From Acidimicrobiales bacterium (lineage in GTDB: Bacteria > Actinomycetota > Acidimicrobiia > Acidimicrobiales > MedAcidi-G1), in NCBI GenBank assembly GCA_014237715.1, contig JAAZZG010000001.1, forward strand, positions 247,177 to 311,176: a stretch of 64,000 nucleotides of DNA, read 5' to 3'. Both the position numbers and the translations under genes were made by a program. Below the pieces are notes generated by a model that made no database searches, was not told the DNA's origin, and saw nothing but the letters and a program-made list of their open reading frames with translations. How positions within the stretch are numbered: the stretch's first letter is position 1; the number at the start of each line of letters is the position of its first letter. Positions 2,601 through 63,094 of the stretch are shown in pieces.

Positions 2601-2606
2601 TAGTCT
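2601..2606 (+). promoter_or_regulatory. -10 element placing leuS on a leaderless mRNA
   Basis: TAGTCT, followed by exactly 7 bases and then the leuS ATG. A start site 7 bases past the hexamer would be the A of the start codon. No Shine-Dalgarno sequence is present. Confidence 0.6.
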
Positions 2607-2613
2607 CACGACG

Positions 2614-5088
2614 ATGTCCGAGCGCTACAACCCTCAGAGCATCGAGACGCGCTGGCGGCAGCACTGGATCGACGAGGGCACCTACGAGGTCGACAACGAT
2701 GACCCCCGCCCGCCGTTCTACGTGCTCTCCATGTACCCGTACCCCAGCGGACCTGCCCACATGGGCCATGTCCGGAACTACACGATGGGCGACCTACTGG
2801 TCCGGTACCGGACCATGTGCGGCGACGGGGTGCTTTCACCCATCGGTTTCGACTCTTTCGGCCTTCCAGCTGAGAACGCGGCCATTAAGACAGGGACCCA
2901 TCCCCGCGAGCACACCGAACGCAACGGCGAAGCACTGTCAGCCTCGTTGCGACGGATCGGCGCCGTTTACGACTGGCGGCGCATGGTCCGCAGCCACGAC
3001 CCGTCCTACATTCGATGGACGCAGTGGATCTTCCTGAAGTTCCACGAGGCCGGCCTCGTGTACCGAGATACCGCGCCAGTCAACTGGTGTCCCGGTTGCC
3101 AGACCGTGCTGGCCAACGAACAGGTCCTCGGCGACGGGACCTGCGAACGCTCCGGTGACCTAGTCGAACGCAGGGACATGGAGCAGTGGTTCTACCGGAT
3201 CACCACCTACGCCCAGGAGCTCCTCGACGATCTCGACACTGTGGACTGGCCAGAGAAGGTCAAAGTCATGCAGCGCCACTGGATCGGTCGGTCAGAGGGT
3301 GCCGAGTTTGGCCTACCCATTCCTGACGACGATGGGGTAGCCCGCACCGATGTGGAACCCCTCGCGGTCTACACCACCCGACCCGATACCTCGTTCGGCA
3401 TGACGTTCGCCGTGATCTCCCCGGAACACCCACGGGTCGACGAGCTCACCACCGATGACCGCCGGGCCGCCGTCGACGCTTTCCGGGCATCGGTGGCCGG
3501 TCGTAGCGACATCGAACGCCAGTCCACCGAGGGTGAACTCGACAAGCGGGGAGTGGCGACCGGTGGCCGGGTGGTCAACCCGTTCACGGGCCAGGCCATC
3601 CCGGTCTTCCTGGCCGACTACGTATTGATGACCTACGGCACCGGGGCGATCATGGCCGTCCCCGGTCAAGACCAGCGCGATTGGGACTTCGCCACCGCCC
3701 ACGGTTGCGAGATCGTGCGCACCGTTCGCCCCCCTGACGATTTCGACGGTGAGGCCTACGTGGGTGAGGGCCCGGCCATCAACTCGGAGTTCTTGGACGG
3801 CATGGGCGTCGCCGAGGCCAAAGCCACGGCCATCTCCTGGCTGGAGGACCATGGTTACGGCTCCGGGAAGGTCAACTACCGACTCCGCGACTGGTTGCTG
3901 TCCCGCCAGCGTTTCTGGGGCTGCCCTATTCCGATCGTCTACTGCGACGCCTGTGGCGAGCAGCCCCTGCCCGTGGACCAACTTCCGGTCGAAGCGCCGG
4001 ACGACGTGGAGTTCGTGCCAACTGGTCAGTCGCCGCTGACGTATCACGAGGGATTCCTGTCGGCCACCTGTCCGTCTTGCGACGGTCCGGCCCGTCGAGA
4101 GACCGACACGATGGACACGTTCGTGGATTCCTCCTGGTACTTCTTGCGCTTCACCGACCCGACCAACGACGAGGCGCCGTTCTCAGTGGAGGCCGCTGAG
4201 CGGTGGTTGCCCGTGGACCAGTACATCGGCGGCGTCGAGCACGCCATTCTCCACCTGATGTACGCCCGCTTCTTCACCAAGGCTCTGTCCGACCTGGGGG
4301 TGGCACCCAAGGGGCTCCGAGAACCGTTCAAGCGGCTCTTCACCCAGGGGATGATCCGCCTCGGCGGCTCCAAGATGTCCAAGTCCAAGGGCAACCTCGT
4401 TTCCCCCGAGGCCATCCTCGAGGACCAGGGCGCAGATGCGCTGCGGTTGGCCCACCTGCAGGTTAAGCCACCACAAGAAGACGTCGACTGGGAGGACTTC
4501 GGCATCGACGGGTGCGCCAAGTTCCTGCAACGCGTGTGGCGTCTCGCCGTGCCGGGTTCTGACCTGACCAATGGCGCCCGTGACGGCGATCCGACCGAGG
4601 CCGATGCCGAGATCGATCGGGCCACGCACCGTCTGGTGGCCCGGATCACCAACGAGTACGACCGGTGGTCGTACAACACGGCTGTCGCCGGGTTCATGGA
4701 GTTCACCAACACGCTCTACCGCTACGTCCAGACTGACGAGGAGATCCACGCCGACACATTGGCTGCAGCGATCGACGCCCTGCTGTTGGTGATGGCGCCC
4801 GCCGCACCACATCTCTGTGCCGAACTCTGGCAGCAGCGAAACGGTGGCCACGTGCACGTCGAGGCCTGGCCTGAGGCTGATCCGGAAAAACTGGTGGACG
4901 ACACCGTCACGATGGTCGTGCAGGTCAACGGCAAGGTCCGAGACCGTGTCGACGTAGCGTCCGACATCGACGAGGACGCCGCAGTGGCCGCCGCCCTGGC
5001 CTGCGAAAAGGTGGCCGTCGCGCTGGCCGGCGCCGAGCCCCGAAAAGTCATCGCCCGACCCCCGAAGCTGGTCAACATTGTCGTCTGA
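2614..5088 (+). CDS. leuS: Leucyl-tRNA synthetase
   Basis: Charges tRNA-Leu with leucine; cytoplasmic class Ia synthetase. The 824-residue length is normal for bacterial LeuRS. Seen: the HIGH-type motif [13 protein letters not shown] near residue 50, the CP1 editing domain ([20 protein letters not shown] at about residue 250), zinc-type cysteine pairs in CDACGEQPL and CPSCDG, the KMSKS loop [10 protein letters not shown] near residue 587, and an anticodon-binding C-terminus. The start is fixed by the conserved N-terminus ([14 protein letters not shown]) and by the -10 element 7 bases upstream. Its left neighbour is a divergent tRNA-Ala, and it converges with the PAC2 gene. Confidence 0.98.
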
Positions 5089-5143
5089 GCTCCTGGTCTG
5101 ATTGGAGCGGCCTAATAGCTGAGGATTGGCCGGATCCGACCGC

Positions 5144-6016
5144 TCAGTCGTCGTGGTTGCGGAGGAACCGCTCCAACTCGGCGGCTAGTTGCTCGCCGTC
5201 GGGAAGCTGCCCCCGGATGTCGTGGAGGTCGTCGTAGGCGGCCTCCAGAGTCTCGAGCATGGTGACGTGCTCGGGGTTCCGGGCAACCAGGTCATCAAGG
5301 CGGGTCCGGGCGGCCAACGCCGACTCGGTCAACGGCCCGTCGTCGAGCTCCATGCCGGTCAGTTCAGCCACCCCGGCCAACAAGGCCTGGGCAGCCGGCG
5401 GGTAGGTACTGCCCGAGAGATAGTGGGGAACCTGAGCCCAGATGCCCACAGCGGGTATCCCCACACGCCCGGCCTCCATCTCGATGACCGCCTGTGCACC
5501 GGCGGGAACCTCAATGGTGGCCGTCAGGAAGTCAAGGCGTTCCGCCAGTTCAGGGCTTCCGGCAGTGCACGACAGCCGGGTGGGTCGGGTATGGGGGACG
5601 GCCGCAGGGTAGGCCCCGAGGCCCACCACCATCCGTACCCCAAGCTGCTGACACAGGTCAACCACAGCGGCCGAGAAGGCCCGCCACTCGTGATCGGGCT
5701 CAGGACCGTACAGCACCAGTACGTCATGGTCGGCCGTGGTCTCCAGCAGGAAAACCTCGAGCGCTGGCCATTCCAGACGTCGACTCACCCCGTCGACGAG
5801 GTGCAGGGTGGGGCGCCGTGCCCGGTGGTCCAGCAACCGGTCGGTGTCGAAGCGGGCGATCCGCCGACCCGGCTCACCGTCCAGCAGGTGTTGTCGGGCC
5901 ACACGGGCCGCACCAGAGGCGTCGATCCATCCGTCCATTGCCACCACCAGCACCGGCTCGGACAAAAGCGGCGTCTCGAGGACCTCGATCAGCGACGAAA
6001 CCGCCTCGTCGGTCAC
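5144..6016 (-). CDS. PAC2 family protein
   Basis: A 290-residue member of the PAC2 (proteasome assembly chaperone 2-like) family, common in Actinobacteria with or without a proteasome (Rv2125 type). Seen: the family N-terminus PVLVVAMDGWIDASGAA, the central LVLYGPEPDHEW-like segment, and the Rossmann-like core GLGAYPAAVPHTRP. The biochemical role of the bacterial family is unknown. Start GTG at 6016 overlaps the stop of the upstream kinase (GTGA), so translation is probably coupled. No 20S proteasome genes are visible in the window. Confidence 0.85.
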   Translation of the reverse strand: MTDEAVSSLIEVLETPLLSEPVLVVAMDGWIDASGAARVARQHLLDGEPGRRIARFDTDRLLDHRARRPTLHLVDGVSRRLEWPALEVFLLETTADHDVLVLYGPEPDHEWRAFSAAVVDLCQQLGVRMVVGLGAYPAAVPHTRPTRLSCTAGSPELAERLDFLTATIEVPAGAQAVIEMEAGRVGIPAVGIWAQVPHYLSGSTYPPAAQALLAGVAELTGMELDDGPLTESALAARTRLDDLVARNPEHVTMLETLEAAYDDLHDIRGQLPDGEQLAAELERFLRNHDD

Positions 6017-7079: not shown

Positions 7080-7085
7080 ACGGTA
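7080..7085 (-). promoter_or_regulatory. -10 element of the phosphotransferase-PAC2 operon
   Basis: TACCGT on the minus strand, 8 bases before the ATG at 7071, consistent with a leaderless transcript. Confidence 0.5.
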
Positions 7086-7123: not shown

Positions 7124-7129
7124 TACCCT
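7124..7129 (+). promoter_or_regulatory. -10 element of the thioredoxin gene
   Basis: TACCCT followed by 7 bases and the ATG at 7137. It supports that ATG over an upstream in-frame start at 7065 that would overlap the divergent gene. Confidence 0.55.
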
Positions 7130-7916: not shown

Positions 7917-8840
7917 ATGCCCGAACCTGCCAATCCGATCCGCGACCGGATCGATGACCTGCTCTCCAAACGACCGCCGACCCCGGCCCGGTGTACCGTC
8001 GATTGGGTGATCGTCGAGTTGGGCCCCGACCACCGCTACGACTGCACCCACCGGTCGCTCGTCATGGGGATTCTGAACCGCACCCCGGATTCGTTCTGGG
8101 ATCGCGGACGGTTCTGGGAGTTCGACGACTTCCTCCGGTTAGCCGAGGCCCATGAGGCCAACGGCGCCGACCTGTTCGACGTCGGCGGCTCCAAGGCCGG
8201 TCCGGGGCCCGAAGTCACCCGGGACGAGGAGATGGACCGCGTGGTGCCAGCCATCGAGGCGCTGCATGCCCGATTCGACCTGCCCATTGCCGTGGACACC
8301 TTCCGGGGTTCGGTGGCCGATGCGGCCATGGAGGTAGGTGCGTGCGTGGGCAACGACATCAGTGGATTCGCTGATCCGACGTTTCTTCCGGCGTGCGCCC
8401 GCCACGGTGCGGCGGTGGTGGCCACCCACGTACGGATCGGTCCGAGGATTCCCGACCCGAGACCGAGGTACGACGATTTGGTGGCCGAGGTCCGCGAATT
8501 TCTGGCTGAGCGCGTCCGATGGGCGACCGAGGCCGGCATCCCCGCCGGGCGGATCATCGTCGACGCAGGCCTCGACCTCGGCAAGACGCCCGACATGTCG
8601 ACCGAACTCCTGCGGCGTTCCGAGGACCTGGCCATCCTGGGTCAACCCATCCTGTTGTCGGCATCCAACAAGGGCTTCCTCGGCGAGGTTACGAGCAGCG
8701 GCCTAGAGGATCGGGTCGAGGCATCGTGGGCGGCCCACGCGCTGGGCATCAGCGGCGGCTGTCGGATCCTGCGTGCGCATGATGTCCGGGGCGCCCGTCG
8801 GGTGGCTGACGTGATGGCTGATGTCATGGCCTCTGTATGA
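7917..8840 (+). CDS. folP2: FolP2-type dihydropteroate synthase-like protein
   Basis: A TIM-barrel pterin-binding protein of 307 residues. LVMGILNRTPDSF near residue 50 matches the DHPS pterin signature, and IAVDTFRGSVADAA and IIVDAGLDLGK are also conserved. The second DHPS loop, normally ESTRPGA, reads GGSKAGPGPEV, and the C-terminal RK segment is replaced by LSASNKGFLGEV. The same changes are found in mycobacterial FolP2 (Rv1207), which I recall as lacking DHPS activity. It is therefore probably not the folate enzyme. The ATG at 7917 has AGGGGTG 6 bases upstream, and its stop overlaps holA (ATGA). Confidence 0.82.
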   Translation: MPEPANPIRDRIDDLLSKRPPTPARCTVDWVIVELGPDHRYDCTHRSLVMGILNRTPDSFWDRGRFWEFDDFLRLAEAHEANGADLFDVGGSKAGPGPEVTRDEEMDRVVPAIEALHARFDLPIAVDTFRGSVADAAMEVGACVGNDISGFADPTFLPACARHGAAVVATHVRIGPRIPDPRPRYDDLVAEVREFLAERVRWATEAGIPAGRIIVDAGLDLGKTPDMSTELLRRSEDLAILGQPILLSASNKGFLGEVTSSGLEDRVEASWAAHALGISGGCRILRAHDVRGARRVADVMADVMASV

Positions 8841-10340: not shown

Positions 10341-10346
10341 TACCGT
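10341..10346 (+). promoter_or_regulatory. -10 element of lepA
   Basis: TACCGT ending 10 bases before the lepA ATG. The transcript would have a leader of no more than about 3 bases. Confidence 0.45.
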
Positions 10347-10356
10347 CTTCGACGGA

Positions 10357-12141
10357 ATGAAACTCTCACGGCTTCGCAACACGTCGATCATCGCCCACAT
10401 CGATCATGGCAAGTCCACACTTGCCGATCGCATGCTTGAGTTGTGCGGTGCCGTGGACCCCCGGGAGATGCGGGACCAGTACCTGGACTCGATGGAACTC
10501 GAGCGGGAACGGGGCATCACCATCAAGTTGCAGAGCGTTCGCCTCGACTGGGGCGACGCGGTCGTCAACCTGATCGACACCCCGGGGCACGTCGATTTCG
10601 GCTACGAGGTAAGTCGGTCGTTGGCGGCTTGCGAGGGCGTGATACTGGTGGTCGACGCCGCCCAGGGGATTGAAGCCCAGACGCTCGCCAATTGCTACCT
10701 GGCGCTCGAGAACGATCTCGAGATCGTGGCCGCCCTCAACAAGATCGACCTCCCGGCCGCCGAGCCTGACCGGTACGCGGAGGAGATCGAACAGGTGCTG
10801 GGCATCCCGGCTGAGGAGATCCTGCACATCAGCGCCAAGACCGGGGAGGGCGTCGCAGAACTACTCGACGCAGTGGTCGAACGCACGCCTCCGCCTGCGG
10901 GTGACCCGGACGCGCCACTCCAGGCTCTGGTCTTTGACAGCCATTTTGACCAGTACCGGGGCGTGGTGTCTTCCATCCGGGTGGTCAACGGCCGTCTCCC
11001 GGCCGAGGCTTCGCTCCGGTTCATGCAGGCCAACGCGGTTCACGTTGCCGATGAGATCGGCGTTCGGCGACCCGACCTGACGCCGGTGGCTGAACTTGGC
11101 CCGGGTGAGGTGGGCTACCTGCTGGCCGGCATCAAGGACGTCGGCGAGGCCCGCTCTGGCGAGACGGTCACCACCAGCCGGAACGGTTCGACCGAGGCCC
11201 TCGAGGGGTACCGCGAGCCTCAACCCATGGTGTTCAGCGGCCTCTACCCGATCGACGGCGATGAGTTCAACGACCTCCGCGACGCTCTCGAGAAGCTACG
11301 ACTCAACGATTCGAGTTTCACCTACGAGCCCGAGACATCCGGGGCCCTTGGATTCGGCTTCCGGTGCGGTTTCCTCGGGCTACTCCACATGGAGATCGTG
11401 CGCGAGCGTCTGGAACGGGAGTTCGGCCTGAGTCTCATCACGACGGCTCCGTCAGTGGAATACCGGGTGGTATGCACCAACGGAGAGGTGCTCGAGATCG
11501 ACAACCCGTGCGACCTTCCGCCGGCCGGAGAAATCGCCGATATCGAAGAACCGTTCCTGTTGGCTCACGTCATCACGCCGACCGCTTTCACGGGCGCTCT
11601 CATGGAGCTCTGTCAAGAACGCCGTGGCGAGCTGGAGGGCATCACATACCTGTCGCCCGAACGGGTCGAGATCAAGTACCACCTGCCTCTCGCCGAAGTG
11701 GTCATCGACTTCTTCGACCAGATGAAGAGTCGCACTCAGGGGTACGCCAGCCTCGACTACGAGCCCGAGGGCTATCGCCAGTCCGATCTGGTGAAGGTCG
11801 ACATCCTGCTGCACGGCGAACCAGTCGACGCCTTCTCGGCGGTCGTTCACCGTGACAATGCCGACGTGTACGGCCGGAAGATGACGGCCAAGCTAAAGGA
11901 GCTCATTCCCCGGCAGCAGTTTGAGGTCCCGATCCAGGCGGCCATCGGCGGCCGGATCATCGCCCGGCAGACTGTCCGGGCTTTCCGTAAGGACGTCACG
12001 GCCAAGCTTTATGGCGGTGATATCACACGGAAGCGAAAGCTGTTGGAGAAGCAGAAGGAGGGCAAGAAGAAGATGAAGTCGATTGGACGCGTCGACGTGC
12101 CCCAGGAAGCTTTCATCTCCGCCCTCAAGCTCGACGAATGA
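10357..12141 (+). CDS. lepA: Elongation factor 4 (LepA)
   Basis: Ribosome-bound translational GTPase. The 594-residue length is normal. Seen: G1 [13 protein letters not shown] at about residue 15, the switch region with RGITIK, G3 [21 protein letters not shown]4 NKIDLP, domain II, and the LepA-specific C-terminal domain ([11 protein letters not shown], then [15 protein letters not shown]). It ends with the lysine-rich tail [16 protein letters not shown] typical of the family. No usable Shine-Dalgarno is seen, but a -10 hexamer lies 10 bases upstream. It precedes the hrcA-dnaJ-rsmE cluster, a very common order in bacteria. Confidence 0.98.
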
Positions 12142-12237: not shown

Positions 12238-12243
12238 TAGCAT
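12238..12243 (+). promoter_or_regulatory. -10 element of hrcA
   Basis: TAGCAT followed by 7 bases and the GTG at 12251, predicting a leaderless hrcA-dnaJ-rsmE transcript. I see no CIRCE inverted repeat at this site. Confidence 0.5.
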
Positions 12244-15195: not shown

Positions 15196-15224
15196 TTGCA
15201 ACCACGGAGCGCGGTCAGTACCGT
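15196..15224 (+). promoter_or_regulatory. Promoter of the bldD homologue
   Basis: TTGCAA, a 17-bp spacer, then TACCGT, 8 bases before the GTG at 15233. It is one of the few promoters here with a recognisable -35, and it predicts a leaderless transcript. Confidence 0.6.
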
Positions 15225-15854: not shown

Positions 15855-15860
15855 TATCCT
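15855..15860 (+). promoter_or_regulatory. -10 element of secA
   Basis: TATCCT ending 9 bases before the secA ATG; near-leaderless. No Shine-Dalgarno sequence. Confidence 0.5.
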
Positions 15861-19843: not shown

Positions 19844-19849
19844 TACCGT
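19844..19849 (+). promoter_or_regulatory. -10 element upstream of the ftsE leader ORF
   Basis: TACCGT, followed by 7 bases and a GTG at 19857 that opens a 17-codon ORF. The spacing is the same as at the leaderless genes in this window. Confidence 0.5.
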
Positions 19850-19856
19850 GCGCGCC

Positions 19857-19910
19857 GTGCCGATCCGACCGATCCGACTTGTCGCGACCCGATCGGAGGA
19901 CGGTCGATGA
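19857..19910 (+). CDS. Putative leaderless leader peptide coupled to ftsE
   Basis: GTG, 16 further codons and TGA. The product would read [17 protein letters not shown]. The predicted transcript start is the G of this GTG. Its TGA overlaps the ftsE ATG (ATGA at 19907-19910), so ribosomes that initiate at the 5' end would stop exactly on the ftsE start. ftsE also has its own GGAGGA upstream. The peptide has no recognised domain, contains three CGA Arg codons and one other Arg codon, and may act only through coupling. This is inferred from position and frame, not from homology. Confidence 0.4.
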
Positions 19911-20584
19911 TTCGACTCGAGGGCGTCTCGAAGGTCTACAAGGGTGACGTGGTTGCCCTGAAGAACGCCACCGCCGAGATCCAGCGCGGCGAGTTCGTCT
20001 TCCTGGTTGGGCCGTCGGGTTCGGGCAAGTCGACCTTCATCCGGTTGCTAAACCGTGAAGAGGTGGCTGACGAGGGCCGGATTATGGTGGCCGGCAAGGA
20101 CCTCGGCGAGATGAGCACATGGCGGGTGCCGTACCTGCGTCGCCAGATCGGTTACATCTTCCAGGACTACAAACTCCTGCCCAAGAAGACGGTGTACGAG
20201 AACGTGGCCTTCGGCCTCGAAGTGATTGGGCGTCCGCGCCAGGTCATCCGCACCCAGGTGCCGGCCATCCTCGAGTTGGTGGGCCTCAGCCGCAAGTCTG
20301 AACGGCTACCTGATGAACTGTCCGGCGGTGAACAGCAGCGGGTGTCCATTGCCCGCGCCTTCGTGAACCGGCCGTTGATCCTGTTGGCCGACGAGCCGAC
20401 CGGAAACCTCGACCCTGCCACCTCAGTGGGGATCATGCGCCTGCTGGATCGCATCAACCGGAGCGGCACCACGGTTGTCATGGCCACCCACGATCGGGGC
20501 ATTGTCGACACGATGCGTCGACGGGTCATCGAGTTGGACCGTGGAGTGATCCGACGTGACGAGTCTCAGGGCGTGTACGAGTGA
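19907..20584 (+). CDS. ftsE: Cell division ATP-binding protein FtsE
   Basis: ATPase of the FtsEX complex that controls septal peptidoglycan hydrolases. The protein has 225 residues. Seen: Walker [18 protein letters not shown] (about 35-50), Q-loop [21 protein letters not shown] signature [14 protein letters not shown], Walker [15 protein letters not shown] and the H-loop MATHDRG. The start ATG has GGAGGA 6 bases upstream and overlaps the stop of a short leader ORF. ftsX follows after 45 bases. Confidence 0.98.
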
Positions 20585-23974: not shown

Positions 23975-26098
23975 TCAGTCGTCCTTCTCGAAGCGGCGGG
24001 CGTCGGTGGAACCGATCACCACCACGATGTCGGCGGCCAGCACCCGGTCGACGGTCGACGGCGCCACGAAGTCGATCAACTCGGGCATCGGCACCTCGTC
24101 GGCGGGCAGGGACAGTGTCGTGCCGACCGCCCTAGCGTCGCCCAGGAATCCGTCCCGGTAGTAGATCGTCGACAACGAGGCCCGGTAGGCGTTACCGGGC
24201 GAGGTCGTCTGGTAACTGTCCAGCCCAAGGAGTCGGGTGACCTTCCCTGCCAACCCACCCACGTTGGAAGCGTTGGCTACGAACACGACCACTTGATCGG
24301 GGGGCCTGCTGAACGGTCCATCCGTCGGCACCGGCACGCCGGCCCGATCCAGTACGACCGGTGGACCCTCGGGCACCAAGCAGCCCGCCGACGCCCCGAA
24401 GCCGACGCCGTGGACGCATGGGTACTCGTATCGACGGACCTGTACGGTCCGCCAACGGCGACCGTCGACCGTGGTGGGACGCATATCAGGCACGTCGACC
24501 GGTCCCACGCCGGCCAGCGCGACCTGCAGAGCCAGCCGGGACGGATCTGGCCCGGCCGCTTCGGCAGCCCGCGCCACCCAGCGCACGAGGCTGCACGCCT
24601 CCACCACCGTCCGGTGGACATCATCTGTGGTGCTTTCGACGGTGGGCACCGCTACGCCCTCGGCCTCCGCCCAAGCCTCGACGCAGAGACGATCGAACGG
24701 TCGTCGTTCAGCGTCATCAAGTCGCTGTGCACCGGTCGCCGACCCGTCGACCACCAGGGCGCCGTCGTAGTAGGTGCCAGCAATCGGACCACCGAACTCG
24801 GCGATCCGGGATGCCACCGCATCCAGGCCCTGTCCGTCCAGGCCCGACAGAACGAACTGTGGGCGGGGCATTTGCTGTTCCAGCATCTCCAGGATCAGCC
24901 ACGGCAGTGACGTCATGTCGACTAGCGGGACCACCACGTCCACGCCGTCATCGACCATTGCGGCGACCGCGGTGGCTAGGCCCACCTGGCATGTGGTGGT
25001 CCCTTCGCATCCGACCTGATACCGGCTGGAAGACATGTCGCCCTTGGCCAGTGCGTGATCGACCGCGGCCATGAGGTCGTCAGACCGTTGAGGTGAATCT
25101 GGTAACACCACCCCGATGGTCGCCCCAACTAGGAGTCCGCGGTCCATGGCGGCTCCCAGGGCAAGGCTCAAGCCAGTTCGATCACCGACCTCGATGGAGT
25201 GGAGTAGGCCCCGCCCTTGGATCAAGTCCAGGTCAGAGATGCCGCGTACGGCGAGATGGGAGACCCGGTTGCGCCGTGTGAGACAGCCTGCGGCAGTTCC
25301 AGGGATGGGGGTGGTGGCCAGAACCACGACTGCCTCGTGAATCTCGACGGCTTCCAGACATGCAGCCTCACGCAGAGTGTCGATATCGAGGTCGCCACCC
25401 CCCAGCGCCGACACGCCAATGGTTCGAAGCTCGAGTGATCGACCGTGGATTCCGCCGCATGCCTCGTTCACGACGTCGACGAACGCAGCCACCATGGCGC
25501 CGGGATCGCCCACCGGCACGCCGAAGCCCACCTTCACCAACTCGTCGAGACGGGTGTCGATCTGGGTGATCACAATGGATTCGGCAGTGATTCCTGCCTC
25601 CACAGCGGTAGGCGCATGCACCGGATCAGCCGAGTCCGTCCGACAGAAGGCGTCCAGTCCGGAGAACCGACTCGTCCGGTCGAGAGACTTCTGAAAGGCA
25701 AGAAAGATCGGCCCGCGGGGGTCGACGTATACGCCATCGGTGACCACTCCGTCGGGTAGTCGATCCGGCGAGAGCACCTCTGGGAACGACTCATTGTCGG
25801 TATTGTCGCCAGCCTCGAGATCCCCGTCGTCGACCCACTCAGTGACGGTCGACGACGTGGCTACCGAGGTCGTCGACTCCACGGGTGCAATCAATGTCGT
25901 GCTGGTGGACGGGGAGGTCTCGGACCCTGGAGCGCTCGTCGTCGGGGCGGGAGTGGACGTGGTCGGTGGAGTGACCGTGGTGACGGCGGTCGGCGAGGCT
26001 GCCACCGACTCGGTCGTGGGGTCGTCGGTCGTGCAGGCGGAGAGGACCACCGCGAGGGCGGCGGCGAGCGCGAGGGTGGTGGGGAGGCGACGGCGCAT
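23975..26098 (-). CDS. Lipoprotein: periplasmic-binding-like module fused to a LytR_C domain
   Basis: A 707-residue exported protein. The signal peptide MRRRLPTTLALAAALAVVLS leads to the lipobox LSAC with Cys22 as the lipid anchor. A long Ser/Thr/Pro linker follows (about 23-110). Residues about 150-560 resemble branched-chain amino-acid ABC-type binding proteins (Peripla_BP_6). Residues 601-700 match the LytR_C domain (VVVFVANASNVGGLAGKV, then STIYYRDGFLGDARAV, then ADIVVVIGS). LytR_C domains usually end LytR-CpsA-Psr wall ligases or occur alone. No permease or ATPase gene is adjacent, so a surface sensor or scaffold role is as likely as transport. The ATG at 26098 is chosen because it begins the signal peptide. 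Confidence 0.8.
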   Translation of the reverse strand: MRRRLPTTLALAAALAVVLSACTTDDPTTESVAASPTAVTTVTPPTTSTPAPTTSAPGSETSPSTSTTLIAPVESTTSVATSSTVTEWVDDGDLEAGDNTDNESFPEVLSPDRLPDGVVTDGVYVDPRGPIFLAFQKSLDRTSRFSGLDAFCRTDSADPVHAPTAVEAGITAESIVITQIDTRLDELVKVGFGVPVGDPGAMVAAFVDVVNEACGGIHGRSLELRTIGVSALGGGDLDIDTLREAACLEAVEIHEAVVVLATTPIPGTAAGCLTRRNRVSHLAVRGISDLDLIQGRGLLHSIEVGDRTGLSLALGAAMDRGLLVGATIGVVLPDSPQRSDDLMAAVDHALAKGDMSSSRYQVGCEGTTTCQVGLATAVAAMVDDGVDVVVPLVDMTSLPWLILEMLEQQMPRPQFVLSGLDGQGLDAVASRIAEFGGPIAGTYYDGALVVDGSATGAQRLDDAERRPFDRLCVEAWAEAEGVAVPTVESTTDDVHRTVVEACSLVRWVARAAEAAGPDPSRLALQVALAGVGPVDVPDMRPTTVDGRRWRTVQVRRYEYPCVHGVGFGASAGCLVPEGPPVVLDRAGVPVPTDGPFSRPPDQVVVFVANASNVGGLAGKVTRLLGLDSYQTTSPGNAYRASLSTIYYRDGFLGDARAVGTTLSLPADEVPMPELIDFVAPSTVDRVLAADIVVVIGSTDARRFEKDD

Positions 26099-26250
26099 GG
26101 GCAGGGTTGGTGCCCGGCAGGGCACCGGTGGACAGTATGCGGGTGGGACCCAACACCGTCGCACCATTGCTTGACCATTTACGGGGCCATGGCTGGGACA
26201 TCAACCCAGGATGCCTGAATCGGTGCCCGGGGGACGGTCCGCTGGTCGCG

Positions 26251-26256
26251 TAGCGT
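26251..26256 (+). promoter_or_regulatory. -10 element of the 429-aa membrane protein gene
   Basis: TAGCGT, then 7 bases and the GTG at 26264. Confidence 0.5.
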
Positions 26257-26263
26257 CGGCGCC

Positions 26264-27553
26264 GTGCCGGACACCGAGGACCCGATCGAACTGCCGGATC
26301 CCGTCGTCGAGGTCGACTCCGCTTCCACCGCTGAAGAGGGCTCTGTGCCCGACCGCATCGACGCCGAGGCCCGGACGGGGGCTTCCGGTGAGCTCCGCGG
26401 ACGCCGGTCCGCCTTTTTCCGGGAACGTTCGGATTCGGTATCACCGACGGCCGGCATGGAGTCCCCTTCGGGCGGCCGGTGGACCGATGCCGAGGCCGAC
26501 CAGCAGATCCGGACCTTTCTCGTCCGCCTGGCCGGCGATCGCCAATTGGTGCACCGTGATGATCCGGTCGAACTCCTCCAGGAGAATGACCTTCTACTGC
26601 TTTTCGGACCGGAGGAGGAGACGGCCTTCGCCGACCTGGCCCTGCGGTTTCCCGACGAAACGGTCACCCGGTGGGCCACGTTGCTCAGCGGAGGCGACCG
26701 CACCGAGGCTTTCGGGCCCCGGTCGAGGGCTGAACGGCGCGACGAGGCCAGCCTCGTTCGTGAGTTCCAGATCGGCATGCGGAAGCGGGCCATGGGTGGC
26801 ATCCTGCTCCTAGGCGTGTTGGTCCTGGTCGGCTTCGGGGCACGAGCCCTGCTGGAGAATGAGCCTGAGGACCGCTCGGACCGATCGCTGCGCTTCTCTG
26901 GATCCACGATTACCGACATCGACGGAGAGCCGGTGCTACGACTCGAGGGAGGCCCCCCGGTCGCCGAACCGACCCTTATCGCGGCGGCCGACAGGGTGGT
27001 GGCCGTCCTTCGAGGCGACGGACCCCCGGAGAACCGGATCCAGCTCGACGTCCCGGACGTCGAGCTTCCGGTACGCCCCGGATTACTGATGGCCACTGTC
27101 TTCGAACACCGGGGAGGTCAGGTCGCGCTCGTGGGCCCGGAGGACTGGTGGATCGGTGCCTGCGTTCGGGTGACCGTGGCGACCGATTCCCTCCGACCGC
27201 TGGACGTCGTGGTGCACGAGTCCAAGGAGGGAGCGTGTCCGGCTGGGCTGGGAGGACGGGCTGCCCGGGTGACGTGCGTCGGCCCGGCCGTACTGATGTT
27301 GGGTGTCGACATTCCCCAGGGCGGCGTGGAACTCGACGAGGGCGGGCTGGGATGGGCCGAGACCATCCGGTTCGGGATCGAGGCCGCTCCGGGGACCGCC
27401 TCGAAGTGGGAGGTCCTGTCCGTCCGGGGAGCGATCACCGTTGCCGACGCTTCAGGGACGAGGGAAATCTCCGTGCCGGCCTTTGGTGGAGCACCCGGCG
27501 ACGTGGTGTCCGTTGAGATCGGCGGGGCCATCGAAGAGTGCACCCTCACCTGA
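26264..27553 (+). CDS. Single-pass membrane protein, unknown function
   Basis: A 429-residue protein. The N-terminal 170 residues are predicted cytoplasmic, acidic and partly disordered at first, with a folded part containing WTDAEADQQIRTFLVRLAGD. A single hydrophobic helix follows a positive patch (RKRAMGGILLLGVLVLVGFG, about 167-187). The remaining 240 residues are probably extracytoplasmic and beta-rich, with several cysteines (GACVRV, EGACPAG, VTCVGP, EECTLT) that could form disulphides. It is divergent from the LytR_C lipoprotein. I do not recognise the family. Confidence 0.75.
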   Translation: MPDTEDPIELPDPVVEVDSASTAEEGSVPDRIDAEARTGASGELRGRRSAFFRERSDSVSPTAGMESPSGGRWTDAEADQQIRTFLVRLAGDRQLVHRDDPVELLQENDLLLLFGPEEETAFADLALRFPDETVTRWATLLSGGDRTEAFGPRSRAERRDEASLVREFQIGMRKRAMGGILLLGVLVLVGFGARALLENEPEDRSDRSLRFSGSTITDIDGEPVLRLEGGPPVAEPTLIAAADRVVAVLRGDGPPENRIQLDVPDVELPVRPGLLMATVFEHRGGQVALVGPEDWWIGACVRVTVATDSLRPLDVVVHESKEGACPAGLGGRAARVTCVGPAVLMLGVDIPQGGVELDEGGLGWAETIRFGIEAAPGTASKWEVLSVRGAITVADASGTREISVPAFGGAPGDVVSVEIGGAIEECTLT

Positions 27554-27626: not shown

Positions 27627-27632
27627 TACGGT
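27627..27632 (+). promoter_or_regulatory. -10 element of the SRAP gene
   Basis: TACGGT followed by 6 bases and the ATG at 27639. No LexA-type box is visible nearby. Confidence 0.5.
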
Positions 27633-30519: not shown

Positions 30520-30525
30520 TAGGCT
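30520..30525 (+). promoter_or_regulatory. -10 element of pgsA
   Basis: TAGGCT, then 7 bases and the ATG at 30533. Confidence 0.5.
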
Positions 30526-31163: not shown

Positions 31164-31169
31164 TAGGTT
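31164..31169 (+). promoter_or_regulatory. -10 element of the gcvH-garA operon
   Basis: TAGGTT followed by 6 bases and the GTG at 31176. Confidence 0.5.
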
Positions 31170-36336: not shown

Positions 36337-37425
36337 TCAGAAGGGGAGGACATTGACGGCCTGCTGGCGGAGCCAGTGGTCGGCCAGTACGAGCAGTGCC
36401 ATGGCCTCCACCATGGGAACAGCACGCGGCAGTACGCACGGGTCGTGGCGACCCTTGGCCTCCAGAGAGACAGCCTCGTTGTCGACAGTGACGGTGTCCT
36501 GTGCCGAGGCAATAGTGGCCGTGGGTTTGAAGGCCACCCGGAACACCACGTCGTCGCCGGTGCTGATGCCGCCCTGGACGCCACCGGACCGGTTGGTGGC
36601 GGTAACCGGTCCGGAGGGCCCGGGCACGAAGGCGTCATTGTGCTGGCGGCCCGTCATGGACACAGCGTCGAATCCGGCGCCCACGTCGAACCCCTTCGAT
36701 GCAGGGAGCGACAGCATGCCTTTAGCCAGGTCAGCCTCAAGACGGTCGAATACGGGTGTGCCGAGGCCGGCCGGTACGCCCCTGGCCACACAGGTCACGA
36801 TGCCGCCCAGCGAGTCGCCGTCACGGCGGGCTGCGTCGATGGCTTGGGCCATGGCGATCGCGGCGAGCGGATCCGGGCAACGGGTGGGGTCGGCCTCCAC
36901 GGCGTGGAAGGTCACCGAGCCGGTATCCACGTCAGCCACCACGTCATGGACCCGGGATACCCAGCCGAGTACCTCAATGCCGGCCACCTCGGCTAGCAGG
37001 CGCCGGGCTATGGCTCCAGCAGCCACACGACCAATGGTCTCGCGGGCGCTGGAACGCCCGCCGCCGCGCCAGTCACGATTGCCGTACTTCGCGTCGTAGG
37101 TGAAGTCGGCGTGCGAGGGGCGGTACAGGTCCTTGAGGTGGTCGTAGGCCCCGGAGCGGGCATCGTCGTTGCGGACCAGCACGGCAACGGGGCCTCCGGT
37201 GGTTCGGCCTTCGAATATGCCAGACAGGATCTCGACGCGATCGGCCTCTGCCCGCTGAGTGGTGAGGCGGCTCTGGCCGGGACGACGACGGTCAAGGTCG
37301 TGCTGCAGGTCCTCCGCGGTCAGGGGGAGGCGGGGTGGGCAGCCGTCGACCACCACACCGATCCCGGCGCCATGGCTCTCGCCCCACGTGCTAATGCGGA
37401 ACAAGGTTCCGAAGGTGTTTCCCAC
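36337..37425 (-). CDS. aroC: Chorismate synthase
   Basis: Last step of the shikimate pathway: EPSP to chorismate, needing reduced FMN. The protein has 362 residues. Seen: [51 protein letters not shown] and [18 protein letters not shown], all family signatures. Near the C-terminus are [20 protein letters not shown] and [14 protein letters not shown] start with TATGCT 8 bases upstream. It is divergent from an acyl-CoA synthetase. aroK/aroB, often adjacent, are not present. Confidence 0.98.
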
Positions 37426-37433
37426 GGAAATCG

Positions 37434-37439
37434 AGCATA
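37434..37439 (-). promoter_or_regulatory. -10 element of aroC
   Basis: TATGCT on the minus strand, 8 bases before the aroC GTG. Confidence 0.5.
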
Positions 37440-37515: not shown

Positions 37516-37521
37516 TACCAT
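37516..37521 (+). promoter_or_regulatory. -10 element of the acyl-CoA synthetase gene
   Basis: TACCAT, 8 bases before the GTG at 37530. It favours that start over an in-frame ATG at 37452. Confidence 0.5.
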
Positions 37522-45150: not shown

Positions 45151-45156
45151 ACGGTA
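45151..45156 (-). promoter_or_regulatory. -10 element of the acyl-CoA dehydrogenase operon
   Basis: TACCGT on the minus strand, 7 bases before the ATG at 45143. It predicts a leaderless five-gene transcript down to 39240. Confidence 0.55.
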
Positions 45157-50547: not shown

Positions 50548-51215
50548 TCGACGGTTCCGGCTACCGGATCGGTTGGACCCGGATCGTCGAGTCGGTCCGA
50601 GCCCTGGTCTAGGCCGGGCAGCGAAACCTGGAATTCGTAGCCCCGGTCGGCGGCGTCGCGCAGCACCAATTGCTCGCATTCGGTCCACGTCCGGGCCCGG
50701 GTGCCGCCAAGATGCTGGTTGTAGGGCGCATCGAAGATGATGACCCTGTTGCCGACCTCGCGTAGTGCTTCGACGTTGTGGGGTCCATCGTCGATGTAGA
50801 GGTCGGCACCCACTTCGGGTTTGTCGCCCATGAAGCAGATGTCGCGGTAGGGGATACGGACCCGGTCCAGCCACTCGACAGTGTCGGCAATGGCAGTGGC
50901 GTGGCTCCAGTTGACGTAGAGGCGATGGGTAATGATCCGAATCCACACGCCTGCGTCGGAGAGTCGCCAGAGGACATCGGCCGCACCGTCGAGCACCGGC
51001 ATCCACGAGAGGATCCGACGTTCAGTTACCGCGTGGTGGTGGAGTCGCTCGAACTCCTCGTCGTCCAGGCCCCACTCGGAGAAGTCCCAGGAACGTTCCA
51101 GCGGAAGATCGTCGAGCGAACAGCCCAGCTGCTCGGCCACCACAGTGCGGAATGCCTCGGTGTAGTCGCCACATACTCCGTCGAGGTCCACGCCGAGGAC
51201 GTAGGGCCGATCCAT
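50544..51215 (-). CDS. HAD-superfamily 5'-nucleotidase-like protein
   Basis: A 223-residue phosphatase of the HAD type (5'(3')-deoxyribonucleotidase family, NT5C-like). Seen: motif [16 protein letters not shown] (nucleophile and acid/base Asp), motif II Thr in [10 protein letters not shown], and motif [16 protein letters not shown]. It would dephosphorylate nucleotides. ATG start with TACCGT 7 bases upstream, although the SDR on the same strand ends only 19 bases before it. The C-terminal 30 residues are Asp/Pro-rich and variable. Confidence 0.88.
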
Positions 51216-51222: not shown

Positions 51223-51228
51223 ACGGTA
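51223..51228 (-). promoter_or_regulatory. -10 element of the HAD gene
   Basis: TACCGT on the minus strand, 7 bases before the ATG at 51215, within the 19-base gap after the SDR stop. Confidence 0.4.
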
Positions 51229-51234: not shown

Positions 51235-51987
51235 TCAGCCCGCGGTCAGGCCGCCGTCCACCGAGACAATGGCGCCGTGCATGCGGCTGGCCTCGTCGGA
51301 CGCCACGAAGGCGATCACATTGGCCAGTTCGTTGGGGTCCGCCATCTTCCGGAAGCCCATGTAGGGCTGCATGAGGGAGAAGTCGAGGTCGTCGGGCATG
51401 TCGAAGTTCTGACTCATGGGGGTGTTGACACCGCCCGGTGCGACGGCGTTGATCCGTACTGGCTCCTTGACGTACTCCATGGCCAGCGCCCGGGTCATGT
51501 TGACCACCGCGCCCTTCGTGGTGCTGTAGGCCACCGTGTAGGCCTGCCCCATTAGTCCGGCGTTCGAGGCGATGTTCACGATGTTGCCGTGGCTCTCGAT
51601 CAGATGGGGGAGCGCCGCTTGGGCACACCAGAAACTGCCTGACACGTTGATTTCCATCATGCGGTTCCAGCCCTCCTCGCTGGTGTCGGCCACCCGCTCG
51701 GCCCACACCACGCCGGCGATGTTGGCCAGCACGTCGAGGCGTCCGTGGGTGGTCACTGCAGCGTCCACCGCTGCGACGCAGTCGGTGCGCCTGGAGACGT
51801 CACCGGTCACCGTGGTCATGGTGCCTCCGGTGTCGTGGACCTCAGCAGCCACGGTGTCGAGACCAGCGACGTCCCGGTCGAAGCCAACGATCGTCGCCCC
51901 GTCGCTGGCCATGCGCAGCGCGGTGGCCCGCCCGATACCCGAGGCCGCCCCGGTTATGAGGGCCACCCGTCCGTCGAACCGTCCCAT
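51235..51987 (-). CDS. Short-chain dehydrogenase/reductase
   Basis: A classical NAD(P)-dependent SDR of 250 residues. Seen: LITGAASGIGRATALRM, NIAGVVWAERV, the catalytic Ser region NIVNIASNAGLMGQA, YSTTKGAVVNMTRALAME with Tyr and Lys, and the C-terminal SVDGGLTAG, all FabG-like. The ATG at 51987 has GGGAGGA about 8 bases upstream; an in-frame ATG 45 bases earlier lacks this. Substrate unknown. Confidence 0.94.
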   Translation of the reverse strand: MGRFDGRVALITGAASGIGRATALRMASDGATIVGFDRDVAGLDTVAAEVHDTGGTMTTVTGDVSRRTDCVAAVDAAVTTHGRLDVLANIAGVVWAERVADTSEEGWNRMMEINVSGSFWCAQAALPHLIESHGNIVNIASNAGLMGQAYTVAYSTTKGAVVNMTRALAMEYVKEPVRINAVAPGGVNTPMSQNFDMPDDLDFSLMQPYMGFRKMADPNELANVIAFVASDEASRMHGAIVSVDGGLTAG

Positions 51988-52765: not shown

Positions 52766-52771
52766 ATCTTA
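52766..52771 (-). promoter_or_regulatory. -10 element of the alkB-like gene
   Basis: TAAGAT on the minus strand, 6 bases before the GTG at 52759. The -35 position coincides with the SOS box. Confidence 0.6.
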
Positions 52772-52778: not shown

Positions 52779-52794
52779 TCGAACACATGTTCGA
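52779..52794 (-). promoter_or_regulatory. SOS box (LexA operator)
   Basis: TCGAACACATGTTCGA is an exact match to the Gram-positive LexA consensus CGAAC-RNRY-GTTYG, with extra symmetric T/A. It overlaps the expected -35 region of the alkB-like gene, so LexA binding would block RNA polymerase. Confidence 0.9.
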
Positions 52795-53367: not shown

Positions 53368-53373
53368 TACTAT
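53368..53373 (+). promoter_or_regulatory. -10 element of the first SGNH gene
   Basis: TACTAT ending 9 bases before the ATG at 53383. Confidence 0.45.
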
Positions 53374-53382
53374 TCCCGGCCC

Positions 53383-54441
53383 ATGAGAGAGCAGGACGCG
53401 AGCCCACGCCGACGGGCCGCTCGTCTACTTGGGCTCTTGGTGCTGGTACTGGTTGGCGCGAGCCTGCTGGCGCCCGACACCGTGGATACGTGGGCCGATA
53501 CCCGTGATGCCGGTTGGGAGCGGGCCACGGCCCGAGCTTGGGCCGACCCGATGGGGAACCTGTCCCGCCGTCTCGCATTCGACGCCCCCTTCCGGTATGT
53601 CGAGGACCTGCTGGACGGTGCGGACCCGGCTGTCGCCGATCCGGCAGTCCGGCCGACTCCCGTCACTCCGTCGACCTCGGAGACCCCGTCCAGTTCCGAA
53701 GCTCTCCCGACAGGGGAGGTCCCGTCGACCTCGGAAGGCCGCAAGGCTCCTGACGCCCCTCCGACTACTCGTGCTCCCAGAATCGCCGATGCGGGCCAGC
53801 CGCTACGGGTCCTCGCCGTGGGCGATTCGCTGATGCTCGACCTGCAGTACGGCCTGGAACGCGTGCTGGACCAGCGGACCGATGTGCGAGTGGAGGGGCG
53901 GGGTGCCCTGGGCTTCGGCTTCACGGTGCCCCACTGGGACTGGGACGACGACGTACTGGTCGACTACGACCGTCTGGTGGCCGACGTGGCGCCCGACGTC
54001 GTGGTGGTCATGATCGGCGCCAACGAGTTTGAGGGGCATGCCATCGAGGGGGAGGATCTCGTTCCGGGGGGTCGGCAATGGCGGGAGGTCCTCTCGGTCC
54101 GGGCCGACGAGGCGATCGCCCACTGGCGGGCCGGCGGTGCCCACGTGTACTGGTGGACCACCCCACGGATGCGCGACGCCCGGTTCCTGACTGATGACCT
54201 GAATGCCATCTGGATCGAGGCCGCCGATGGCTGGGGGGCCGGGGTCACCGTGATTGAGAGCATGGCCATCCTGGGTGACGTCGACGGGAGCTACCGAGAG
54301 GTCTTGCGGGATGAGACTGGTGTCGAGGTGCCTCTACGCAAGGACCACGGCGTCCACTTCCATGAGGTGGGGGCCGACCTCTTGGCCCGGCAGTTGGAGG
54401 ACCGTCTCGTGCGAGATGGCTGGGTGGTGAACCGCCCCTAG
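53383..54441 (+). CDS. Membrane-anchored SGNH/GDSL hydrolase (DUF459-like)
   Basis: An extracytoplasmic esterase or acyltransferase-like protein of 352 residues. An N-terminal hydrophobic anchor (LLGLLVLVLVGASLLA, 15-30) and a Ser/Thr/Pro linker (about 90-135) precede the SGNH domain. Block I is LAVGDSLMLD (Ser149), block III MIGANEFEG (Asn214), and block V DHGVHFHEVG. All four blocks are present. Such enzymes remove or transfer O-acetyl groups on cell-wall or surface glycans. Its TAG overlaps the TAG of the convergent DUF2304 gene in the shared palindrome CTAG. Confidence 0.85.
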   Translation: MREQDASPRRRAARLLGLLVLVLVGASLLAPDTVDTWADTRDAGWERATARAWADPMGNLSRRLAFDAPFRYVEDLLDGADPAVADPAVRPTPVTPSTSETPSSSEALPTGEVPSTSEGRKAPDAPPTTRAPRIADAGQPLRVLAVGDSLMLDLQYGLERVLDQRTDVRVEGRGALGFGFTVPHWDWDDDVLVDYDRLVADVAPDVVVVMIGANEFEGHAIEGEDLVPGGRQWREVLSVRADEAIAHWRAGGAHVYWWTTPRMRDARFLTDDLNAIWIEAADGWGAGVTVIESMAILGDVDGSYREVLRDETGVEVPLRKDHGVHFHEVGADLLARQLEDRLVRDGWVVNRP

Positions 54442-56942: not shown

Positions 56943-56948
56943 ATCCTA
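56943..56948 (-). promoter_or_regulatory. -10 element of the minus operon 56.9-54.4 kb
   Basis: TAGGAT on the minus strand, 9 bases before the ATG at 56933. Confidence 0.45.
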
Positions 56949-57003: not shown

Positions 57004-57009
57004 TACTCT
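57004..57009 (+). promoter_or_regulatory. -10 element of the second SGNH gene
   Basis: TACTCT, 6 bases before the ATG at 57016. Confidence 0.5.
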
Positions 57010-63041: not shown

Positions 63042-63058
63042 CCACCGGGGCCGGTGCG

Positions 63059-63064
63059 AGCGTA
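63059..63064 (-). promoter_or_regulatory. -10 element of the flavoprotein operon
   Basis: TACGCT on the minus strand; predicted start near 63052, about 11 bases before the ATG at 63041. Its -35 position overlaps the divergent promoter. Confidence 0.4.
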
Positions 63065-63088
63065 CCGGGCGGCCCAGAGGCCCGACGG

Positions 63089-63094
63089 TACGCT
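63089..63094 (+). promoter_or_regulatory. -10 element of the right-end GT39 gene
   Basis: TACGCT, 7 bases before the GTG at 63102. Confidence 0.5.

What the first reader, a model, noticed from the sequence alone, without database searches (positions are those of the whole stretch)
2601..63094. Window-wide leaderless gene architecture
At about 21 operon-leading genes (leuS, both thioredoxin-side divergent genes, lepA, hrcA, bldD, secA, the ftsE leader, SRAP, pgsA, gcvH, aroC, acyl-CoA synthetase, an ACAD operon, HAD, alkB, two SGNH genes and others) a TANNNT hexamer lies 6-10 bases before the start codon, and there is no Shine-Dalgarno. Most remaining operon leaders (methyltransferase, MerR, HIT, class II aldolase, SDR, small orphans) have a Shine-Dalgarno and no such hexamer; the 26098 lipoprotein gene shows neither clearly. 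In DNA with roughly one sixth A and one sixth T, TANNNT at a fixed position is expected about 0.5% of the time, so the clustering is far above chance. Leaderless mRNAs are known in mycobacteria and Streptomyces; a near-dichotomy of this strength seems notable for this lineage.
Basis: partly seen in the sequence, partly recalled or inferred. Interest (0 to 1): 0.72.

Follow-up and report, generated by a model that had tools for sequence, protein, structure and literature searches.

The report
Leaderless gene starts in an actinobacterium
Between a fifth and two fifths of this actinobacterium's operon-first genes appear to be read from RNAs that begin almost exactly at the start codon, which is the ordinary way many actinobacterial genes are built rather than something new.

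Summary
The window comes from an Acidimicrobiales (Actinomycetota) draft genome. In it, 21 gene starts plus one leader ORF have TANNNT ending 6-10 bases upstream. In 864 kb of the genome, with starts chosen without the motif, exact TANNNT before 519 operon leaders numbers 0, 0, 45, 24, 29, 7, 3 at spacers 4-10 and at most 1 at each of 11-20; operon-internal genes have 2 in 164 at 6-8. In five genus relatives the hexamer is kept in 74 of 77 usable orthologues, at the same spacer in 68 of 74, against 1 of 41 for Shine-Dalgarno-type genes. Random-start motif discovery found it unaided in its best runs. Corynebacterium shows the peak (9 of 72, 3.1 expected); Methylobacterium of equal GC does not (2 of 111, 1.1 expected). 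Letters, spacing and ATG:GTG ratio resemble Streptomyces lividans leaderless promoters; the missing -35 resembles Mycobacterium tuberculosis. Most likely these are -10 boxes giving leaderless or 0-4-nt-leader mRNAs. The dichotomy is partly geometric and weaker than claimed. Extra: ftsE follows a conserved putative leaderless mini-ORF ending in RTGA, a kind known from mycobacteria. Ordinary for the phylum; no transcript data.

The parts
2601..2606 (+). -10 hexamer TAGTCT of leuS (start ATG 2614, spacer 7)
   Evidence: kept in G016, G028, G020
7080..7085 (-). -10 hexamer TACCGT of APH-family gene (start 7071, spacer 8)
7124..7129 (+). -10 hexamer TACCCT of thioredoxin/TPR gene (start 7137, spacer 7)
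7994..7999 (+). -10 hexamer TACCGT of pterin-binding (folP-like) gene (GTG 8007, spacer 7)
   Evidence: kept in 4 of 4 relatives with a hit
10341..10346 (+). -10 hexamer TACCGT of lepA (ATG 10357, spacer 10)
   Evidence: spacer 10 in 5 of 5 relatives
12238..12243 (+). -10 hexamer TAGCAT of hrcA (GTG 12251, spacer 7)
   Evidence: 5 of 5 relatives
15219..15224 (+). -10 hexamer TACCGT of bldD-like gene (GTG 15233, spacer 8)
15855..15860 (+). -10 hexamer TATCCT of secA (ATG 15870, spacer 9)
   Evidence: 5 of 5 relatives, spacer 9-10
19844..19849 (+). -10 hexamer TACCGT of the ftsE leader ORF (GTG 19857, spacer 7)
19857..19910 (+). 17-codon putative leaderless leader ORF whose TGA overlaps the ftsE ATG (RTGA)
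   Evidence: RTGA in 16 of the 18 loci (own included) that have a TANNNT-7-GTG leader ORF; 30 loci examined
19907..20584 (+). ftsE, SD-led (CGGAGGA), perhaps coupled to the leader ORF
26251..26256 (+). -10 hexamer TAGCGT of ORF 26264 (GTG, spacer 7)
26132..26137 (-). TACTGT 6 bases before in-frame GTG 26125 of the LytR_C lipoprotein gene; start ambiguous (GTG 26125 or ATG 26098)
27627..27632 (+). -10 hexamer TACGGT of SRAP gene (ATG 27639, spacer 6); start fixed by the MCGR N-terminus
30520..30525 (+). -10 hexamer TAGGCT of pgsA-like CDP-alcohol phosphatidyltransferase gene (ATG 30533, spacer 7)
31164..31169 (+). -10 hexamer TAGGTT of gcvH (GTG 31176, spacer 6)
37434..37439 (-). -10 hexamer TATGCT of aroC (GTG 37425, spacer 8)
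   Evidence: 5 of 5 relatives, spacer 8
37516..37521 (+). -10 hexamer TACCAT of acyl-CoA synthetase gene (GTG 37530, spacer 8)
45151..45156 (-). -10 hexamer TACCGT of ACAD gene (ATG 45143, spacer 7)
51223..51228 (-). -10 hexamer TACCGT of NT5C/HAD gene (ATG 51215, spacer 7)
   Evidence: 3 of 5 relatives
52766..52771 (-). -10 hexamer TAAGAT of alkB-like gene (GTG 52759, spacer 6)
53368..53373 (+). -10 hexamer TACTAT of first SGNH/DUF459 gene (ATG 53383, spacer 9)
   Evidence: 5 of 5 relatives, spacer 9
56943..56948 (-). -10 hexamer TAGGAT of ORF 56933 (118 aa, ATG, spacer 9; no family found)
57004..57009 (+). -10 hexamer TACTCT of second SGNH/DUF459 gene (ATG 57016, spacer 6)
   Evidence: kept in G016, other relatives not assessable
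63089..63094 (+). -10 hexamer TACGCT of membrane-protein-like ORF starting GTG 63102 (spacer 7), running off the window
   Evidence: weak TIGR03663 match, below its cut-off

Best explanation
TANNNT is the -10 element of the housekeeping (sigma-70/SigA-type) promoter. In this Acidimicrobiales genome between a fifth (exact hexamer, motif-blind starts) and two fifths (EM estimate, probably high) of operon-leading genes have it so close to the start codon (6-8 bases, sometimes 9-10) that transcription should begin at, or 0-4 bases before, the ATG or GTG. The mRNA then has no room for a Shine-Dalgarno, and translation starts by the leaderless route (ribosome engaging a 5'-terminal RTG), as in other Actinomycetota. 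The remaining leaders are SD-led or have no clear signal, and genes inside operons almost never carry the hexamer. Shown here: motif, fixed position, restriction to operon leaders, orthologue conservation, lineage controls. Inferred: sigma factor, transcription start, leaderless translation.
For: Motif-blind starts, 864 kb: spacers 4-10 give 0, 0, 45, 24, 29, 7, 3 in 519 leaders; 2 in 164 internal genes at 6-8. The sharp left edge at 6 is what is expected if +1 must not fall inside the start codon (inference). Random-start EM: the two best of 10 runs give TAgnnT (spacer 6) and gnaGGA (spacer 8). Log-likelihood 451 real against -5 to -15 in three shuffles. Strong SD words in 2 of 101 TA leaders against 95 of 416 others, starts chosen without the motif. 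Orthologues: 74 of 77 usable rows keep TANNNT, 68 of 74 the spacer, SD controls 1 of 41; conservation around the hexamer drops to background 7 bases upstream. SRAP, whose MCGR N-terminus fixes the start, has spacer 6 in all 11 same-genus genomes (own included) printed, and in G028. Other samples: G001 9 of 56 (0.4 expected), G002 12 of 58 (1.2); G043 16 of 94 (1.1), Corynebacterium 9 of 72 (3.1), Methylobacterium GC 66.7% 2 of 111 (1.1). No -35 information; CGN/SRN/TGN before the hexamer 48/79/9 of 145, close to M. tuberculosis. Letters T .71, A .95, T .95 against .638/.945/.974 in S. lividans leaderless promoters; mean -10 to TSS distance there 6.3 nt; ATG:GTG 68:32 there, 62:38 here.
Against: No RNA data. 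The gene caller is home-made, and start choice in the EM uses the motif: with shuffled upstream sequence 19 of 279 leaders (reversed 14, reverse complement 7) still pass posterior 0.9, against 78 real, so the 0.41 share is probably high; the motif-blind 19.5% (101 of 517) is probably low because some starts are miscalled. In one same-order genome of 75% GC (G034) the peak is weak, 6 of 118 (0.4 expected), and EM did not recover the motif. Spacers 9-10, conserved at lepA, secA and SGNH1, imply leaders of a few bases, not strictly zero. In one search, 24 of 105 TA gene-relative pairs and 4 of 45 SD pairs had no hit or no alignment reaching residue 1-3, and 4 more TA pairs had no start codon at the aligned place; all these were left out. 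Three TA pairs lacked the hexamer. The 16S 3'-end pattern was not found in the draft assembly, so the anti-SD was not seen.
Confidence: 0.93

Rival explanations
1. The hexamers are -10 boxes, but the starts used here are wrong: translation begins at downstream in-frame codons with ordinary leaders and Shine-Dalgarno sites.
For: Start choice in a 66% GC genome is uncertain; a few genes (26098/26125 lipoprotein, ACAD, alkB) align to alternative in-frame starts in relatives.
Against: SRAP's MCGR N-terminus fixes its start at spacer 6. Orthologues align from residue 1 for LepA and SecA in 5 of 5 relatives and for LeuS in 3 of 4. The spacer is the same in 68 of 74 orthologues, and the left edge at spacer 6 would have no reason to exist.
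Confidence: 0.04
2. Composition artefact: A+T-rich words are commoner in the short intergenic space before starts, so TANNNT collects there without function.
For: TANNNT is rare in this window overall (92 found against 332 in shuffles), so non-coding stretches can look enriched.
Against: The peak is confined to a few positions and falls to background on both sides. A Methylobacterium sample of equal GC shows none. Hexamer positions are 0.78-0.90 identical in relatives against 0.49-0.66 for the bases 7-20 upstream of it.
Confidence: 0.01
3. A distinct, non-promoter signal (for example a translation enhancer) at about -14 to -7.
For: The position overlaps that of an SD.
Against: Genes inside operons, which need translation but no promoter, lack it: 2 in 164, 3 of 168. 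Its letters resemble published TSS-mapped -10 boxes.
Confidence: 0.02

Closest known systems
TA-led (leaderless) genes of Actinobacteria, Zheng et al. 2011 (PMC3160421; abstract, section 7 and passages read)
   Same: TAnnnT about 10 bp upstream of the start; leaderless genes in 86 of 89 actinobacterial genomes, mean 19.2% (2.3-29.8%), alongside SD-led genes.
   Different: The main text does not name Acidimicrobiia; its genome list was not seen.
Leaderless transcriptome of Mycobacterium tuberculosis, Cortes et al. 2013 (PMC3898074; passages read)
   Same: TANNNT -10, no -35 found, preceded by SRN in 49% and TGN in 7%; 26% of genes with a primary TSS are leaderless (here SRN 79 of 145, TGN 9 of 145).
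   Different: There growth-function genes are depleted among leaderless ones; in this window leuS, lepA and secA carry the leaderless signal. Functional enrichment was not tested here.
Leaderless promoters of Streptomyces lividans TK24 (PMC8079986; passages read)
   Same: T .638, A .945, T .974; -10 to TSS 6.3 nt; ATG:GTG 68:32.
   Different: That paper reports a -35 consensus (TTGACn) for part of the leaderless set; none was seen here.
RTGA-coupled leaderless small ORFs in mycobacteria, Shell et al. 2015 (PMC4633059; passages read)
   Same: Small ORF starting at a leaderless RTG and ending in RTGA at the next gene; in an example there the peptide is not conserved while the linkage is.
   Different: Here upstream of ftsE in an Acidimicrobiales genus; 'ftsE' does not occur in that paper's main text.

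Membership tests
Actinobacterial leaderless (TA-led) genes | TANNNT-type -10 box at a fixed short distance from the start codon | tested here: met
   Peak at spacers 6-8
Actinobacterial leaderless (TA-led) genes | No Shine-Dalgarno before these starts | tested here: met
   2 of 101 with strong SD words against 95 of 416 other leaders
Actinobacterial leaderless (TA-led) genes | Confined to monocistronic or operon-leading genes | tested here: met
   2 in 164 or 3 of 168 operon-internal genes have it at 6-8
Actinobacterial leaderless (TA-led) genes | ATG or GTG start, not TTG | tested here: met
   91 ATG, 54 GTG, 0 TTG among 145 confident cases; TTG is also rare in the SD class, so this is weak evidence
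Actinobacterial leaderless (TA-led) genes | mRNA 5' end at the start codon (0-5 nt leader) | not testable with these tools
   No transcript data; inferred from promoter geometry
Actinobacterial leaderless (TA-led) genes | Conservation of the state between related species | tested here: met
   74 of 77 usable orthologue rows in five genus relatives
RTGA-coupled leaderless small ORFs (ftsE leader) | -10 box 6-8 nt before an RTG whose ORF ends in RTGA of the next gene | tested here: met
   window 19844-19910; RTGA in 16 of the 18 loci with such a leader ORF, of 30 loci examined
RTGA-coupled leaderless small ORFs (ftsE leader) | Frame kept more often than chance | tested here: inconclusive
   Only five length classes (GTG-to-start 35, 50, 65 end in RTGA; 49 and 91 do not), so 3 of 5. 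Sample-wide 6 of 19 against 90 of 1635 RTG without the box, Fisher p 4.8e-4, nested ORFs not independent
RTGA-coupled leaderless small ORFs (ftsE leader) | Translation of the small ORF | not testable with these tools
   No ribosome profiling

The most novel reading that the evidence does not exclude
In this genus ftsE (cell division) is obligatorily translated through a conserved leaderless mini-ORF: ribosomes load at the 5'-terminal GTG, read mostly 12-22 codons of unconstrained peptide, and pass on to ftsE at an RTGA junction. Leaderless initiation, and so conditions that favour or impair it, would directly set FtsEX output.
Probability: 0.4. Interest if true: 0.4.

Novelty: new member of a known kind. 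Interest (0 to 1): 0.25.

Why it matters
It extends a known actinobacterial trait to an Acidimicrobiales genus, a group for which two searches of the held library found no earlier report (one of the three papers opened in passages, two seen only in the listings). It gives a practical rule for correcting start codons there: TANNNT + 6-8 + RTG. Conserved gene-specific spacers (10 at lepA, 9 at SGNH1 in five of five relatives) offer a natural data set on how many leader bases leaderless initiation tolerates.

Tried and rejected
A general excess of leaderless small ORFs was rejected: RTG is not enriched at 6-8 after other intergenic TANNNT (5, 6, 6 of 151 sites, in line with neighbouring spacers). 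A third start motif (GATC, seen in suboptimal EM runs) was not supported: the highest position, -10, has 11 against a mean of 4 over 42 positions in 519 leaders, not convincing after that many looks. A -35 box was sought and not found. Whole-genome counting of TANNNT-N6-ATG without gene context (81+81 against 51+63 reversed) was too blunt and gave no excess in several other genomes, so it was replaced by gene-aware counts. The 16S 3'-end search found nothing in the draft assembly.
Full report
Origin. The window is bases 247177-311176 of contig C11 of a 2.33 Mb draft genome in 75 contigs, 92.6% complete. LepA's nearest named relatives are metagenome-assembled genomes labelled Acidimicrobiales or Acidimicrobiaceae (92% BH16, 91% RS454, 89% bin111s), so this is a member of Acidimicrobiales, Actinomycetota, probably uncultured.

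Is the observation there? Every TANNNT of the window was listed: 92 on both strands, where dinucleotide shuffles give 332, so the hexamer is avoided in this DNA. Twenty-one of the 92 end 6-10 bases before a plausible gene start, and a 22nd before a leader ORF of ftsE (starts; letters and spacers rechecked). Over the 23 sites rechecked, which include the ambiguous lipoprotein site, spacers are 6 (5), 7 (10), 8 (4), 9 (3), 10 (1). The alkB-like protein and ORF 56933 matched no NCBIfam model.

Is it more than chance, and genome-wide? I wrote a small gene caller (codon log-odds; starts chosen by coding score and codon type only, with no upstream signal) and applied it to 864 kb of the genome in separate stretches: 818 genes, 519 leaders (divergent, or at least 40 nt behind a same-strand gene), 164 internal (10 nt or less). 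Exact TANNNT by number of bases between hexamer and start, 0 to 12, for leaders: 1, 1, 1, 3, 0, 0, 45, 24, 29, 7, 3, 1, 1; for internal genes 1 at 6 and 1 at 7. The peak does not depend on motif-aware start choice. An EM search from random starting motifs on the first 464 kb (279 leaders) found TAgnnT at spacer 6 and gnaGGA at spacer 8 in its two best runs of ten; the other eight settled on shifted or other motifs at lower likelihood. A seeded EM on the 519 leaders gives shares 0.41 TA, 0.43 SD, 0.16 neither, and log-likelihood 451 against -5 to -15 in three shuffles. The 0.41 is probably high: with shuffled upstream sequence 19 of 279 leaders still reached posterior 0.9 (reversed 14, reverse complement 7) against 78 real. 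The motif-blind share, 101 of 517, is probably low, because miscalled starts miss their hexamer.

Anatomy. Among 145 leaders with posterior above 0.9 (133 with the exact hexamer) the spacer is 6 (72), 7 (41), 8 (31) or 9 (1), and the start ATG (91) or GTG (54), never TTG. Aligned on the hexamer, no position 10-40 bases upstream carries more than 0.05 bits, so there is no -35 signal; CGN precedes the hexamer in 48, [CG][AG]N in 79 and TGN in 9 of 145. M. tuberculosis promoters were described with no -35, SRN 49%, TGN 7% (PMC3898074, passages). For S. lividans leaderless promoters T/A/T are .638/.945/.974, the -10 to TSS distance is 6.3 nt and ATG:GTG 68:32 (PMC8079986, passages); here .71/.95/.95 and 62:38. 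S. lividans does show a -35 consensus, a difference. With a 6-nt distance, spacers 6-10 mean leaders of 0-4 nt. The abrupt edge (0, 0, then 45 at spacers 4, 5, 6) fits a rule that the start codon may not be cut (inference).

Conservation. In syntenic stretches of five genus relatives (21 TA-type and 9 SD-type genes), with alignments reaching residue 1-3 and a start codon at the aligned place, 74 of 77 TA-type rows have TANNNT at spacer 5-11, 68 of the 74 at the identical spacer; SD-type genes have it in 1 of 41 (an SDR gene in G024, apparently switched). Left out before the count: 24 of 105 TA pairs and 4 of 45 SD pairs with no hit or no full N-terminus, and 4 TA pairs without a start codon there. 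Identity to the own sequence is 0.71-0.90 from 6 bases before to 1 base after the hexamer (0.90, 0.88 and 0.90 at T1, A2, T6), 0.49-0.66 at the bases 7-20 upstream of it, 0.52-0.69 just downstream, rising again (0.88-0.94) close to the start codon in fewer rows. SRAP is the cleanest case: the N-terminal MCGR (that Cys2 is catalytic is recalled) fixes the start, and TACNGT + 6 + ATG stands in all 11 same-genus genomes printed, own included, and in G028. lepA keeps spacer 10 in all five relatives and shows spacers of 8-11 in several more distant Acidimicrobiales, while others show no such hexamer at the aligned start.

Controls and spread (leaders with exact hexamer at 6-8, starts without motif; expected from flanking positions): own 101 of 517 (4.4); five genus relatives pooled 49 of 224 (1.4); G043, same order, 16 of 94 (1.1); G034, same order, 75% GC, 6 of 118 (0.4; EM did not recover the motif); Corynebacterium 9 of 72 (3.1); Methylobacterium, GC 66.7%, 2 of 111 (1.1; EM drifted to another motif). 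Small samples of the named relatives BH16 (G001) and ANT-33 (G002) gave 9 of 56 (0.4) and 12 of 58 (1.2). The trait is lineage-linked, not a GC effect, and is weaker or harder to see in G034.

The dichotomy. Strong SD words occur in 2 of 101 TA leaders and 95 of 416 others. Mutual exclusion is expected from space alone: hexamer plus 6-8 nt fills the SD site, and upstream DNA is not transcribed. The other half of the claim is weaker than stated, since most non-TA leaders lack a strong SD word by this measure; with SD-aware starts it is 105 of 229.

The ftsE leader. TACCGT 19844-19849 stands 7 bases before GTG 19857, which opens 17 codons ending in TGA overlapping the ftsE ATG. Of 30 ftsE loci, 18 have a TANNNT-7-GTG leader ORF: all 16 own-genus loci (a 17th genome, G027, gave no ftsE orthologue) and two of the same family. 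Sixteen of the 18 end in RTGA, with lengths of 12, 17 or 22 codons and poorly conserved peptides; in G025 and G032 the stop begins 11 bases into ftsE. Eleven more distant loci lack it, and a twelfth (G036) has only a six-codon chance match. By independent length classes this is 3 of 5, not significant. Sample-wide, RTG after a -10 box ends in RTGA in 6 of 19 cases against 90 of 1635 without the box (Fisher p 4.8e-4; nested ORFs make this optimistic). Shell et al. 2015 describe this class in mycobacteria as 'coupled', including an example where only the linkage is conserved (PMC4633059, passages). A search for 'ftsE' with 'leaderless' listed nine papers, none opened.

Known or new? Zheng et al. 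2011 found leaderless genes in 86 of 89 actinobacterial genomes, mean 19.2% (PMC3160421; abstract, section 7 and passages). StartLink (PMC9581028, passages) treats Actinobacteria as a clade with a significant number of leaderless genes. Searches for 'leaderless' with 'Acidimicrobi' (two papers; one opened in passages, the other seen only in the listing) and 'transcription start sites' with 'Acidimicrobi' (one paper, listing only) showed no report for this class in the held library, which lacks most subscription journals. Verdict: a well-supported, ordinary trait in a lineage where I found no report of it.

Noticed in passing
window 52780-52793 (upstream of the alkB-like gene, start 52759, minus strand): A LexA/SOS-type box CGAAC-N4-GTTCG (consensus recalled) lies just upstream of the leaderless -10 hexamer; GAAC-N4-GTTC stands upstream in all five genus relatives. 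Only two exact copies of the box in 864 kb. It suggests SOS control of this gene from a leaderless promoter.
   Followed up: partly
window 19844-19910 and loci L149-L178: Putative leaderless mini-ORF coupled to ftsE by RTGA; distances from GTG to the ftsE start are 35, 50 or 65 nt (15-nt steps), with 49 and 91 as exceptions.
   Followed up: partly
SDR gene at 51987 (window) and its G024 orthologue; NT5C gene at 51215 in G019 and G024: Apparent switches between SD-led and TA-led states within one genus.
   Followed up: no
lepA 10341-10357, SGNH1 53368-53383, aroC 37425-37439: Gene-specific -10 to start spacers are conserved (10, 9 and 8) across five relatives, though 6 is the commonest spacer in the genome sample.
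   Followed up: partly
L309-L318 (G034, same order, 75% GC): The TANNNT peak is weak (6 of 118 leaders) and EM did not recover the motif; a real loss or poor start calling was not decided.
   Followed up: no
window 26081-26290 minus strand: The LytR_C lipoprotein gene has two candidate starts: GTG 26125 (TACTGT, spacer 6) or ATG 26098 with neither signal; the signal-peptide-like N-terminus (read by eye) favours 26098.
   Followed up: partly
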